A DNA stretch of 64,000 nucleotides from Kribbella kalugense (lineage in GTDB: Bacteria; Actinomycetota; Actinomycetes; Propionibacteriales; Kribbellaceae), in NCBI RefSeq assembly GCF_004365875.1, contig NZ_SODF01000001.1, positions 1,364,001 to 1,428,000 of the forward strand. Reading direction: 5' to 3'. This document shows, in pieces, positions 8,790 to 18,289 of this stretch; positions within the stretch are counted from its first letter, which is position 1, and every line of letters starts with the position of its first letter. Under the pieces are notes generated by a model, which worked only from the letters and a program-made list of their open reading frames with translations, ran no database searches and was not told the origin of the DNA. The translations under genes were made by a program, and so were the position numbers.

Positions 8790-10445
8790 GTGCGCAAAGC
8801 TCTGCTCCTCGTTCTCGCGGCCTGTCTCACGGTCGCCACCGCCGCCCTTCCGGTCACTCCCCCGGCCGCCGCGGCGCCGGTTCGGTCGGAGGCAGGGCTC
8901 CGTGCGTACTTCGTGATCACCGAGCCGAACCAGACCGGCAAGGTCACCGGAGCGATCACCCAGAAGGGTGGGACGGTCTACGCGACGTACGACGCCATCG
9001 GGGTAATCGTGGCGCACTCGACCGCTTCCGACTTCGCCACCAAGATGCGCGGCGTCGACGGAGTCCAGAAGGCCGGGGCGACGCGTACGACGGACCTGCC
9101 GGCCGATGTCGGCAACCCGGCGATCCCGCCGGCGGTCACGGAGACCGCGACGGCCGCACCGGAATCGGAGCGCGCCGACATGACGCAGATCGGCGCCGAC
9201 CGGGCCTGGGAGAAGAACCCGGGCTCGAAGAGCATCACGGTCGGCGTACTCGACACCGGCATCGACGACCAGCACCCGGACCTGAAGGCGAACTTCGACG
9301 CGTCGAAGTCGGCGTCCTGCGCCTACGGCAAGGTCGACACCCGGCCGGGCGCGTGGCGACCGGTCGAGGAGCATGGCACGCACGTGGCCGGCACGATCGC
9401 CGCGGCGAAGAACGGCATCGGCATGATCGGGGTCGCGCCCGGGGTGAAGGTGTCGTCGATCCGGGTCGCCGAGGCCAAGACCTCGCTGTTCTTCCCGGAG
9501 AACACGGTGTGCGCGTTCATGTTCGCCGCCGACAAGGGCGTCTCGGTGACGAACAACAGCTACTACGTCGACCCGTGGCTGTACAACTGCCCGAGCGACA
9601 AGGACCAGGACGCGATCGCCGAAGCGGTACGGCGGTCCGTCGCGTACTCGGACAGCAAAGGCGTCGTGAACGTCGCCGCCGCCGGCAACGAGGACGCCGA
9701 CCTGGCCAACAAGACCGGCGACGACTCGAGCCCGGACGACTCGACCGCCACCCCGCGGACCGTCACCACCGACTGCATCAGCCTGCCGAACGAGCTGCCC
9801 AACGTCGTCGTGGTCGCGTCGGTCGACCCGACGAGCATGAAGTCGCAGTTCTCGAACTACGGCGTGAACAAGATCAACCTGGCCGCCCCGGGCGAGGACG
9901 TCTACTCGACCGTGCCGGGCGGCGGCTACAAGATTCTCGAGGGTACGTCGATGGCCTCGCCGCACGTCGCCGGCGTCGCGGCACTGCTCCGGAGCATCAA
10001 TCCCAAGCTGACTCCCGCCCAGGTGCGGGCTCGACTCGCCCAGGAGGCCAACGATCTTCCGTGCCCGGCGGGTTCGTCCGGCCAATGTGCAGGGGCGGCA
10101 GCCAACAACTCGTTCTACGGCGAGGGTCTGGTCGACGCGGCCGAGGCGGTCGGCGCCGCGTCCGCACAAACTCAGGGTGCGCTCACGATCACCGAGCCGT
10201 CCGAGCAGATCGGCGTCGGCGGAATCCCCGGGATCCCCCTGCTGATGAAGGGCACCGGCGGCACGGGCAAGATCAGCTATACCGCCACCGGTCTCCCGCC
10301 CGGCCTCTCGATCGACGCCGAGCGCGGCTGGATCACCGGCGTACTCACCCCTGGCTCCGGCCGCTACAAGGTCACCGTCACTGCCCGCGACGGCGAAGCC
10401 AAGACGGCCGGGACCACTTTCTACTGGGACGTGTGGAGCTTCTAG
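8790..10445 (+). CDS. Secreted S8 family subtilisin-like serine protease
   Basis: Subtilase of 551 residues with a Sec signal peptide (KALLLVLAACLTVATAAL, cleavage near AAAAP). An inhibitor-I9-like propeptide follows, with the protease domain from about residue 130. The catalytic triad is Asp155 (VLDTGIDDQHPD), His195 (EEHGTHVAGT) and Ser387 (GTSMASPHVAG). A C-terminal domain of about 85 residues resembles a putative immunoglobulin-like (He_PIG) fold (ATGLPPGLSIDAERGWITG). The GTG at 8790 was chosen because it starts the signal peptide; an upstream GTG at 8724 is less plausible. Its end overlaps the convergent vanS gene by 4 bp. Confidence 0.93.
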   Translation: MRKALLLVLAACLTVATAALPVTPPAAAAPVRSEAGLRAYFVITEPNQTGKVTGAITQKGGTVYATYDAIGVIVAHSTASDFATKMRGVDGVQKAGATRTTDLPADVGNPAIPPAVTETATAAPESERADMTQIGADRAWEKNPGSKSITVGVLDTGIDDQHPDLKANFDASKSASCAYGKVDTRPGAWRPVEEHGTHVAGTIAAAKNGIGMIGVAPGVKVSSIRVAEAKTSLFFPENTVCAFMFAADKGVSVTNNSYYVDPWLYNCPSDKDQDAIAEAVRRSVAYSDSKGVVNVAAAGNEDADLANKTGDDSSPDDSTATPRTVTTDCISLPNELPNVVVVASVDPTSMKSQFSNYGVNKINLAAPGEDVYSTVPGGGYKILEGTSMASPHVAGVAALLRSINPKLTPAQVRARLAQEANDLPCPAGSSGQCAGAAANNSFYGEGLVDAAEAVGAASAQTQGALTITEPSEQIGVGGIPGIPLLMKGTGGTGKISYTATGLPPGLSIDAERGWITGVLTPGSGRYKVTVTARDGEAKTAGTTFYWDVWSF

Positions 10446-11512
10446 CGGGGCAATTGCACTTTCACGCGAAGTCCGCCGGCGGCGCGGGGCGTGAGAGTCA
10501 GGGTTCCTTCGTGCGCTTGCGTGATGCTTTTGACGATCGCCAGGCCGAGGCCGACACCTGCGTGGTCGGTGCGGGTGCGTTGAGTGCCGCGCTGGAACGG
10601 TTCGGTGAGTGTCGAGACCAGCTGTGGCGTGAGCTTCTCGCCGGTGTTCTCGACGGTGAGCACCACAGTCCTGGAGCGAAGGCTGGTCGTGACCCACACC
10701 GTGCCGTCCGCCTGCAGGTTGTGGACAATCGCGTTGTTGACGAGATTCGTGGTCAGCTGCAACAGCAGCGTGTGTGAGCCGGTGGTCGGGGTGATCTCGC
10801 CGGAGGTCTCAATCGTCAGACCGCGCTTCTCCGCCAATGGAAGCAGTGTTTCGGCTGCCTCCTCCGCGATCAGGGACAGGTCGACGGGTTCCCGGCTGAA
10901 GGTCCGCTGGTTGGCCCGGCTGAGCATGAGCAACGCTTCGGTGAGGTCGATCGCCCGGTTGTTGACGTAGAGCAGGCGGTCGACGAGTTCACCGCTGTCG
11001 CGGTTGCGATCGTTGCGGGCCACCTCGAGAAGGGTCTGCGTGATCGCGAGCGGCGTACGCAGTTCGTGCGAGGCGTTGGCCGCGAATCTCTGTTGCTCGG
11101 CGTCGTGTGCCTCGAGCTGCGCCAGCATGGTGTCGAAGGCATCGGCGAGCTCACGGAACTCGTCCTCGCGGCCCTCCAGTTGGATCCGGTGCGACAGCGA
11201 TCCGGTCGCGGCCAGTCGCGCGGCGTTGGTGATCCGGGTCAGCGGCGCGAGCATGCTGCCGGCCAGGATCCAGCCTCCGATCAGGCCGAAGACCAGCAGA
11301 AACGCGATCATCAGGGCTGCCTTCGGGGCGAACGCGCTCAGCAGGTCGAAGCGGTCGGGACCGCTCATGTGCGTGGGACCGAAGTTCGTGGGGACGTACC
11401 GCAGCAGGAACACCCACACGACCGCGAGCAGCGCACCACCGGCGAGCATGATGACCGCGGCATAGCTGAGGGTGAGCTTGAGGCGAACGCTCAAACCCGG
11501 CTCTCTATCCAC
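10442..11512 (-). CDS. vanS: VanS-type sensor histidine kinase
   Basis: Membrane histidine kinase of 356 residues starting at a GTG. Two membrane segments (about 12-34 and 64-87) enclose a short extracytoplasmic loop of about 30 residues. A HAMP domain and the H box ASHELRTPL follow, with the phospho-acceptor His149, and then HATPase_c. The start MDREPGLSVRLKLTLSYA and the FRELADAFDTMLAQLEAH segment closely match what I recall of the vancomycin-sensing VanS of Streptomyces coelicolor. The small loop fits direct drug sensing. It follows vanR with an 8-bp overlap, so the two are co-translated. Confidence 0.92.
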   Translation of the reverse strand: MDREPGLSVRLKLTLSYAAVIMLAGGALLAVVWVFLLRYVPTNFGPTHMSGPDRFDLLSAFAPKAALMIAFLLVFGLIGGWILAGSMLAPLTRITNAARLAATGSLSHRIQLEGREDEFRELADAFDTMLAQLEAHDAEQQRFAANASHELRTPLAITQTLLEVARNDRNRDSGELVDRLLYVNNRAIDLTEALLMLSRANQRTFSREPVDLSLIAEEAAETLLPLAEKRGLTIETSGEITPTTGSHTLLLQLTTNLVNNAIVHNLQADGTVWVTTSLRSRTVVLTVENTGEKLTPQLVSTLTEPFQRGTQRTRTDHAGVGLGLAIVKSITQAHEGTLTLTPRAAGGLRVKVQLPR

Positions 11513-17255: not shown

Positions 17256-18289
17256 AGCTCGGCATCGTCTTCGGGGGATCTTCCGAAGAACACCCCATCT
17301 CCCTCAAGTCCGCGCAACAGGTCGCCGACAACATCGACCGCGAGAAGTACGAGCCGTACTGGATCGGGATCACGAAGAGCGGCGCGTGGATGCTGTGCGA
17401 CGGCCCCGACGCCGATTGGGAGAGCGGCAACTGCCGACCCGCCGTACTGTCACCCGACCGGAACATGCACGGACTGCTCGTCCTGGACCAGGGGCGTTGC
17501 GAGACGATCCGACTGGATGTCGTGCTGCCCGTTCTGCACGGCAGGTTCGGCGAGGACGGTTCGGTGCAAGGTCTGCTCGAGCTCTCCGGCATCCCGTACG
17601 TCGGCTGTGACATCCCGAGCTCTGCCCTGTGTATCGACAAGTCCCTGGCCTACACCGTCGCCGGCAGTGCTGGAATCGCCACACCGAAGTACTGGATCAT
17701 CACGACGGACGACGACATCGATACGAGTCAGTTCACCTATCCCATCTTCGTGAAGCCGGCTCGTTCGGGTTCGTCGTTCGGCGTCAGCAAGGTCTCCGGA
17801 GAAGACGAATTGCATGATGCACTGAAGGCCGCGCGGCAGTACGACTCGAAGGTGCTGATCGAGGAAGCTGTCGTCGGCAGCGAGATCGGCTGCGCCATCT
17901 TGGGGAACGGTCCGGAGTTGCTCGCCGGCGAGGTGGACCAGATCGCGCTGACTCATGGTTTCTTCAAGATCCATCAGGAGAGTACGCCGGAAAGCGGCTC
18001 GGACAACTCGACCGTCATCGTCCCCGCGGACATTCCGGCCGAGTCACGGACACGTGTCCAGGAGACCGCGAAGGCCATCTACCGCGCTCTGGGCTGCCGC
18101 GGGTTGTCGCGGGTGGACATGTTCCTCAAGGAAGACGGGACCGTCATGCTCAACGAGGTCAACACCCTGCCCGGGCTGACGTCGTACAGCCGCTATCCGC
18201 GGATGATGGATGCCACCGGACTGTCGCGGACCGAGGTGATCGACCGGATGGTGTCGTTGGCGTTCGCAGCAAAGTCCGATGGACGCTGA
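17246..18289 (+). CDS. vanA: D-alanine--D-lactate ligase, VanA type
   Basis: ATP-grasp ligase of 347 residues making D-Ala-D-Lac. GGSSEEHPIS opens the N-terminal domain. LHGRFGEDGSVQGLLELSGIP, FVKPARSGSSFGV, GEVDQIALTHGFFKIHQE and LNEVNTLPGLTSYSRYPRMM follow VanA almost motif by motif. The omega-loop His243 corresponds to VanA His244, the residue tied to D-lactate specificity; D-Ala-D-Ala ligases have Tyr in that loop. Start ATG 17246 has AGAAAG 5 bp upstream; ATG 17252 would give a classic ATGA overlap with vanH. Downstream there is no vanX; the next gene is convergent. Confidence 0.95.
   Translation: MDMKLGIVFGGSSEEHPISLKSAQQVADNIDREKYEPYWIGITKSGAWMLCDGPDADWESGNCRPAVLSPDRNMHGLLVLDQGRCETIRLDVVLPVLHGRFGEDGSVQGLLELSGIPYVGCDIPSSALCIDKSLAYTVAGSAGIATPKYWIITTDDDIDTSQFTYPIFVKPARSGSSFGVSKVSGEDELHDALKAARQYDSKVLIEEAVVGSEIGCAILGNGPELLAGEVDQIALTHGFFKIHQESTPESGSDNSTVIVPADIPAESRTRVQETAKAIYRALGCRGLSRVDMFLKEDGTVMLNEVNTLPGLTSYSRYPRMMDATGLSRTEVIDRMVSLAFAAKSDGR

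What the first reader, a model, noticed from the sequence alone, without database searches (positions are those of the whole stretch)
10442..18289. A van-type D-Lac cluster without vanX, carrying a signal-less VanY/VanXY-like peptidase
Seen: vanS-vanR, vanY-vanK-vanZ, murF with a small ORF, and vanH-vanA sit together. After vanA comes a convergent unrelated gene, so the third gene of the vanHAX unit is absent. Known: VanX removes residual D-Ala-D-Ala in the cytoplasm and is needed for full resistance in vanA and S. coelicolor type clusters; VanXY enzymes in enterococci combine both activities and are cytoplasmic. Inference: the 155-residue M15 peptidase at 12282, with full zinc site (His96, Asp103, Glu129, His132) and no export signal, may replace VanX. 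This would be a distinct cluster design.
Basis: partly seen in the sequence, partly recalled or inferred. Interest (0 to 1): 0.9.

Follow-up and report, generated by a model that had tools for sequence, protein, structure and literature searches.

The report
Vancomycin-resistance cluster missing its vanX
A group of soil bacteria (Kribbella) keeps a vancomycin-resistance gene set that has lost one normally required enzyme, and in the same group a related enzyme has lost its membrane anchor, so it probably works inside the cell and may do the missing job.

Summary
The window, in a Kribbella genome, carries vanS-vanR, vanY-vanK-vanZ, murF with a small ORF, and vanH-vanA, without vanX; the VanX family is absent from the whole 8.3 Mb assembly. 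Of 30 vanA-bearing Kribbella genomes, 6 lack a VanX-type gene; they form one clade and keep the other genes under purifying selection. The other 24 have vanX right after vanA. Of those, 21 have the same VanY with a membrane anchor; in all six vanX-less genomes VanY has none. The six also share two active-site changes absent from 47 other VanYs, both matching VanX locally: an Arg two residues after the first zinc His, and a 4-residue loop deletion. In the window, vanY, murF and vanHA share a promoter element found only three times in the genome. Limits: one evolutionary event; anchorless VanY coexists with vanX in other genera; Phytoactinopolyspora lacks VanX but has an anchored VanY; overall similarity to VanX is barely raised; dipeptidase activity is untested. 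A vanX-less cluster with another M15B peptidase is published for Ktedonobacteria. Verdict: new variant of a known kind.

The parts
10442..11512 (-). vanS, VanS-O-like sensor kinase
   Evidence: Pfam HAMP/HisKA/HATPase_c; best NCBIfam VanS-O 516 bits, below its cut-off 720
11505..12203 (-). vanR, VanR-O-like response regulator
   Evidence: Response_reg + Trans_reg_C; best NCBIfam vanR-O 452 bits, below its cut-off 505
12218..12260 (+). shared promoter-like element upstream of vanY
   Evidence: one of only 3 places in the genome, reversed control 0; the pattern was built from these three sites
12282..12749 (+). vanY, anchorless 155-aa M15B peptidase, proposed VanX stand-in
   Evidence: PF02557; no hydrophobic N-terminus; HxRG motif and short loop; AlphaFold pLDDT 92.7, best match VanYB Z 11.5
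12746..13876 (+). vanK, FemX-type branching enzyme (GTG start read from the sequence)
   Evidence: PF02388; FemX NCBIfam model 85 bits, below its cut-off 500
13873..14451 (+). vanZ-like membrane protein
   Evidence: PF04892
14506..15879 (-). cluster-borne second murF of the genome
   Evidence: TIGR01143 401 bits, over cut-off; another full MurF lies at C1:2268670
15876..16052 (-). small membrane-protein ORF ahead of murF (58 aa from the GTG below the element, read from the sequence)
   Evidence: weak homologue in L131; no Pfam match
16074..16116 (-). shared promoter-like element of the small ORF-murF unit
16145..16187 (+). shared promoter-like element of vanH-vanA
16209..17255 (+). vanH, D-lactate dehydrogenase (ATG at 16209 read from the sequence; fits the start of the NCBIfam vanH-Amyco model)
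   Evidence: 2-Hacid_dh; vanH models up to 579 bits, below their own cut-offs
17246..18289 (+). vanA, D-Ala-D-Lac ligase
   Evidence: NF000206 D_ala_D_lac 601 bits over cut-off 550
18295..18846 (-). RibD-like gene standing where vanX normally is
   Evidence: PF01872
18856..19284 (-). GNAT acetyltransferase of the kind found in many van clusters, here on the opposite strand
   Evidence: PF00583; a match of 40 bits or more in 35 of 107 van loci, the window included

Best explanation
This is a vanO-like D-Ala-D-Lac glycopeptide-resistance cluster of a Kribbella species clade whose ancestor lost vanX. VanS and VanR turn on three units from one promoter type: vanY-K-Z, small ORF-murF, and vanHA. 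VanH and VanA make D-Ala-D-Lac, the dedicated MurF joins it to the cytoplasmic precursor, and VanK branches the D-Lac precursor. The clearing of D-Ala-D-Ala, done by VanX elsewhere, is done inside the cell by the anchorless VanY. It either removes the terminal D-Ala from UDP-MurNAc-pentapeptide (the more conservative activity) or also hydrolyses free D-Ala-D-Ala, as VanYn and VanXY do. Shown: gene content, VanX absence from the assembly, anchor loss, shared promoter element, clade-specific active-site changes, purifying selection. Inferred: cytoplasmic location, VanR binding, the roles of MurF and VanK here, the substrate of VanY, and the compensation itself.
For: No PF01427 in the genome; 6 of 30 vanA genomes of the genus lack a VanX-type gene and 24 of 30 have one behind vanA. 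A second-site Ddl with a D-Ala-D-Ala-type loop (motif recalled) remains, so D-Ala-D-Ala is presumably still made. VanY is anchorless in the 6 vanX-less Kribbella loci and anchored in 21 of 21 vanX+ Kribbella loci that have it. Arg at His+2: 6 of 6, against 0 of 47 other VanYs and 95 of 95 VanX. Tyr and Asp at +12 and +14 from the catalytic His: 6 of 6 and 93 of 95 VanX; at +16 and +18 in 45 of 47 other VanYs. Promoter element at vanY, murF and vanH only. Median dN/dS among the six: VanA 0.12, VanH 0.15, VanY 0.18, MurF 0.14, no stops in these four. Best of four NCBIfam matches is VanY-N, though below its cut-off (63 against 250 bits; [quoted passage not shown]
Against: One evolutionary event, so the coincidence of the losses has n = 1, and the active-site comparisons were chosen after seeing the alignment. 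Anchorless VanYs occur with vanX in 21 loci of other genera, and Actinopolymorpha pittospori has a short VanY, an anchored VanY and vanX together. Phytoactinopolyspora has no PF01427 but keeps an anchored VanY without the two changes. The score against a VanX profile is hardly raised (six clade members 3.7-8.0 bits, 47 others median 4.2 and up to 6.8; p 0.066, rows not independent), and the Pro that VanX has at +9 is missing in at least four of the six. Only 2 residues separate the zinc strand from the next helix in the model, so the VanXYG bisubstrate loop seems missing; its absence opens the site in LdcB (PMC4087270, passages). Deleting vanYAb in A. balhimycina did not change resistance (PMC7325946, passage).
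Confidence: 0.5

Rival explanations
1. Selectivity has moved to the cluster MurF: it prefers D-Ala-D-Lac over D-Ala-D-Ala, so the dipeptide pool no longer needs clearing and VanX became dispensable; VanY is only a helper.
For: All 9 loci with vanHA but no vanX among 103 carry a murF match, against 20 of 94 vanX+ loci, in three lineages. The window genome has a separate full MurF elsewhere. The cluster murF has its own copy of the promoter element in the window.
Against: Only 3 independent losses; median p 0.5 in the pair test. 20 clusters hold both murF and vanX. The MurF matches of the two Ktedonobacteria loci are only 38-39% identical. The murF element was not found in the five other vanX-less Kribbella loci. 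No specificity data. Loci cut by contig ends may hide a murF.
Confidence: 0.2
2. Another cytoplasmic enzyme of the genome hydrolyses D-Ala-D-Ala, such as an M55 D-aminopeptidase (DppA type; its activity on D-Ala-D-Ala is recalled), or in the other five species the distant VanX-like protein beside a Ddl-like gene.
For: Two M55 genes in the genome. The five other vanX-less genomes each have a weak PF01427 match (51-62 bits) beside a Ddl-like gene.
Against: The weak PF01427 gene is missing in the window genome and present in all 8 vanA-less genomes. No fourth promoter element in the genome. M55 was not compared between vanX+ and vanX-less species.
Confidence: 0.12
3. The cluster is a reduced, low-level or decaying system; the VanY changes are drift after vanX was lost with the 3' end of the operon.
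For: The 3' side is rearranged: RibD-like and opposite-strand GNAT in the window, GNAT upstream of vanA in four of the five others. Residual resistance without VanX is plausible (inference).
Against: The six species group as one clade (81/88) yet keep low dN/dS with no stops in VanA, VanH, VanY, MurF, VanR and VanS, and keep promoter elements at vanY and vanH.
Confidence: 0.15

Closest known systems
vanO / S. coelicolor-type vanSR-K-murF-HAX clusters of actinobacteria
   Same: regulators nearest to VanS-O/VanR-O models (below cut-off); vanK, murF, vanHA in the order seen in many of the fetched Streptomyces loci
   Different: vanX absent; anchorless VanY in the first operon
Ktedonobacteria van loci (PMC9689679, section 3.3 read)
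   Same: vanHA without vanX, an M15B peptidase and murF nearby
   Different: there the M15B is over 320 aa and paired with a C39 peptidase between vanRS and vanHA; the window VanY query found no homologue in L029 and L076
VanYn of Nonomuraea (PMC3610138, abstract and passages)
   Same: best NCBIfam match of the window VanY (below cut-off); M15B, reported D,D-carboxypeptidase and D,D-dipeptidase
   Different: 196 aa with an N-terminal membrane anchor and an outside catalytic domain; no vanHAX found in that strain (PMC7325946, passage)
VanXY of enterococci
   Same: M15B enzyme in a van cluster; fold matches VanXYg Z 10.3, VanXYc 9.7; VanXY is cytoplasmic (recalled, as in the finding)
   Different: 22.5 bits against a 250 cut-off, shorter, seems to lack the bisubstrate loop; VanXYc belongs to a D-Ala-D-Ser cluster (PMC7325946)
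Anchorless VanY of Pseudonocardiales van loci
   Same: anchorless orthologues 66-72% identical
   Different: those loci have vanX; no Arg at His+2, longer loop

Membership tests
VanX (M15D, PF01427) | PF01427 match | tested here: not met
   the VanY protein matches PF02557 only; no PF01427 anywhere in the genome
VanXY (NF000380) | score over the curated cut-off of 250 bits | tested here: not met
   22.5 bits
VanXY | D,D-dipeptidase plus D,D-carboxypeptidase activity | not testable with these tools
   needs purified enzyme
VanXY | no export signal or anchor | tested here: met
   no hydrophobic N-terminus, upstream in-frame stop; the location itself is inferred
VanXY | bisubstrate selectivity loop between the zinc strand and the next helix | tested here: inconclusive
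   strand 102-104 then helix 107-120 in the model leaves no room for it; no residue-level superposition was made
VanY M15B carboxypeptidases (PF02557) | PF02557 over cut-off, with SxHxxGxAxD and ExxH | tested here: met
   52 bits against 25; SPHVRGQAID and EPWH
VanY-N (NF000086) | score over cut-off of 250 bits | tested here: not met
   63 bits
D-Ala-D-Lac van clusters (vanHAX) | vanH and D-Ala-D-Lac ligase adjacent, with vanRS | tested here: met
   NF000206 over cut-off; order
D-Ala-D-Lac van clusters (vanHAX) | vanX as third gene | tested here: not met

The most novel reading that the evidence does not exclude
In one Kribbella clade a membrane-anchored VanY was re-made into a cytoplasmic VanX substitute: it lost its anchor and gained the Arg and the C-terminal loop length of VanX when vanX was lost. 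It would be a D-Lac counterpart of the VanXY enzymes of D-Ser clusters, with its anchored sister forms still present in neighbouring species.
Probability: 0.3. Interest if true: 0.8.

Novelty: new variant of a known kind. Interest (0 to 1): 0.57.

Why it matters
VanX is held to be needed for full D-Lac-type vancomycin resistance. A natural, selectively maintained cluster without it gives a direct test of what else can clear D-Ala-D-Ala: a relocated VanY or a selective MurF. Related species with vanX and an anchored VanY form a ready comparison, and the two clade-specific active-site changes name the features to test.

Tried and rejected
Rejected: 'this VanY is special to vanX-less clusters'. 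Orthologues stand in 47 of 94 vanX+ loci, 66-77% identical but for one partial match at 49%. Rejected: 'anchor loss always goes with vanX loss'; outside Kribbella it does not. Rejected: G255 as a further independent vanX-less genome; it is the Phytoactinopolyspora contig of L046 again. So in a class-wide sample of 394 genomes, 22 had vanA including the window's; of the 22 loci of the other 21 genomes, 21 had vanX. L061 and L083 (vanA with no whole vanX beside it) were not counted as vanX-less because their genomes hold VanX; L061 has a 28-residue vanX-like piece.

Weak or null: shift of the clade's VanY toward a VanX profile (p 0.066; 0.012 with His+2 masked; rows related). Profile comparison of one VanX with the VanY alignment: 5% probability. 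Pair test of murF against vanX: only 3 pairs. The second model, the anchored L152 VanY, shows a short helix 171-174 where the clade has its deletion, but gives no functional answer. Presence of cluster genes was called by tblastn at 100 bits or more within the fetched flanks, so genes beyond contig ends are missed. The anchor was called by a simple hydropathy rule, not by a signal-peptide program; in L124, L149 and L151 the frame upstream of VanY is open for about 270 codons without a hydrophobic stretch near.

Rows dropped: duplicates L014, L015, L016, L018, L024 from all trees and counts; L006, L057, L061, L083 from the VanA tree and its counts (103 rows kept); L066 (partial) and L069 (left out by the tree program) from the VanY set (53 kept). 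The stops that one search shows for VanK in L124 and L139 and for VanH in L138 were not followed up; the VanK and VanH queries start upstream of the likely start codons, which may explain them.

Not in print, as far as searched: paper searches, and 'find' in PMC8698665, PMC9689679 and PMC11273654 show no Kribbella in the main texts of these three. PMC8698665 Table 1 lists 16 vanH, 16 vanA and 16 vanX for Propionibacteriales. Its Figure 7e and all supplements were not seen. Two paper searches of ten were left unused.
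Full report
The locus. VanA passes the D-Ala-D-Lac ligase cut-off. vanX does not follow. A convergent RibD-like gene ends 6 bases after vanA, and beyond it lies a GNAT gene on the opposite strand, of a type found near vanA in 35 of 107 loci.

Where it is.

vanX is missing from the genome. PF01427 has no match in the own assembly (100% complete by the tool's estimate, 5 contigs). Of the 38 genomes searched in the genus, 24 have a strong VanX (187-222 bits). 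All 24 have vanA, and vanX lies just behind it. Six vanA genomes lack it: G000, G012, G018, G026, G032 and G034. Five of these keep a distant PF01427 protein (51-62 bits) beside a Ddl-like gene. Such weak matches occur in 29 of 38 genomes, the 8 vanA-less ones included; the window genome has none. A search for vanX remnants around these loci gave only chance-level matches.

One shared loss. On a tree of housekeeping Ddl genes of the 38 genomes, the six form one clade (81/88, not starred). On the VanA tree they also group (SH-aLRT 82). With median dS of 0.45 to 0.71, VanA, VanH, VanY and MurF of the six have median dN/dS of 0.12 to 0.18 and no stops; a vanX+ Kribbella set gave 0.20 to 0.23 for the first three. 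The cluster is therefore being kept without vanX.

VanY has lost its anchor. In 21 vanX+ Kribbella loci the orthologous VanY starts with a hydrophobic anchor (best hydropathy 1.7-2.5). In the six vanX-less loci it has none (-0.5 to 0.7), and three of them have an in-frame stop within 9 codons upstream. The other 3 vanX+ Kribbella loci have no VanY in the fetched flanks. The six VanYs form a group (93/72) among mostly anchored forms.

Active-site changes. The six share an Arg two residues after the first zinc His and a shorter stretch after ExxH. None of 47 other VanYs has the Arg; all 95 VanX proteins from the fetched loci have it. Tyr and Asp after the catalytic His lie at +12 and +14 in the six, as in 93 of 95 VanX, and at +16 and +18 in 45 of 47 other VanYs, the other two having Leu and Asp there. 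The VanX Pro at +9 is not shared by at least four of the six. These comparisons were chosen after seeing the alignment, and a whole-sequence test against a VanX profile gave only a faint shift.

Fold. The AlphaFold model (pLDDT 92.7) matches VanYB best (Z 11.5), then among van enzymes VanXYg 10.3, VanXYc 9.7 and VanX 7.1. The fold alone does not tell the substrate. The turn between zinc strand and helix is 2 residues, so the bisubstrate loop that closes the VanXYG site (PMC4087270, passages) appears absent. VanYn, whose model is the best NCBIfam match, was reported to have both activities (PMC3610138, passages).

Regulation. A 43-base element read from the window lies upstream of vanY, of the small ORF-murF unit and of vanH; the pattern built from these three sites occurs nowhere else in the genome with up to 3 mismatches (reversed control 0). 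Looser copies stand twice or more in 24 of 30 Kribbella van loci, none in shuffled loci; in the five other vanX-less loci they were found at vanY and vanH and behind vanA, not at murF. That this is the VanR site is inference. It puts VanY in the same regulon as vanHA.

Counter-cases. Anchorless VanYs occur with vanX in 21 loci of other genera. Actinopolymorpha pittospori has nearly the window's order with a short VanY, and in addition vanX and an anchored VanY behind vanA. This suggests, as inference, that the Kribbella cluster arose by losing such a 3' end. Phytoactinopolyspora endophytica has no PF01427 and an anchored VanY without the two changes. So vanX loss does not require this VanY.

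MurF. All 9 loci with vanHA but no vanX have a murF match, against 20 of 94 with vanX, in three lineages. The number of independent losses is too small to test. A D-Lac-selective MurF is the main rival.

Literature. vanX loss with gain of an M15B and a C39 peptidase is published for Ktedonobacteria (PMC9689679, section 3.3 read). For Propionibacteriales a 2021 survey counted vanH, vanA and vanX as 16 each (PMC8698665, Table 1). I found no report of the Kribbella case in the searches named, with the supplements unseen.

Verdict. It is a new variant of a known kind.

Noticed in passing
L072:5227-5751 and L072:11734-12393 (Actinopolymorpha pittospori): One van cluster with two VanY genes, one anchorless and one anchored, that group together in the tree of catalytic parts (100/95).
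   Followed up: partly
L149:3000-4750 and the matching parts of L124, L125, L150, L151: In the five other vanX-less Kribbella a vanZ and a second vanS homologue lie 5-8 kb behind vanA, with a further copy of the promoter element near them.
   Followed up: no
G012, G018, G026, G032, G034: A distant VanX-like gene sits beside a Ddl-like gene, reminiscent of the pdx operon of Micromonosporales described in PMC8698665; weak VanX-like matches occur in 29 of 38 genomes and not in the window genome.
   Followed up: no
L046:11038-12789 (Phytoactinopolyspora endophytica): vanA is followed directly by a GNAT gene and a murG-like gene (the latter named from its sequence and the literature, no family search), without vanX: a second, separate vanX-less actinobacterial cluster.
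   Followed up: partly
L149:9285-9377 (minus strand): A short membrane-peptide-like ORF of 30 codons directly after vanA in K. pratensis (read).
   Followed up: no
window 15876-16052: 58-aa membrane-protein-like ORF with its own copy of the van promoter element, ahead of murF; function unknown.
   Followed up: partly
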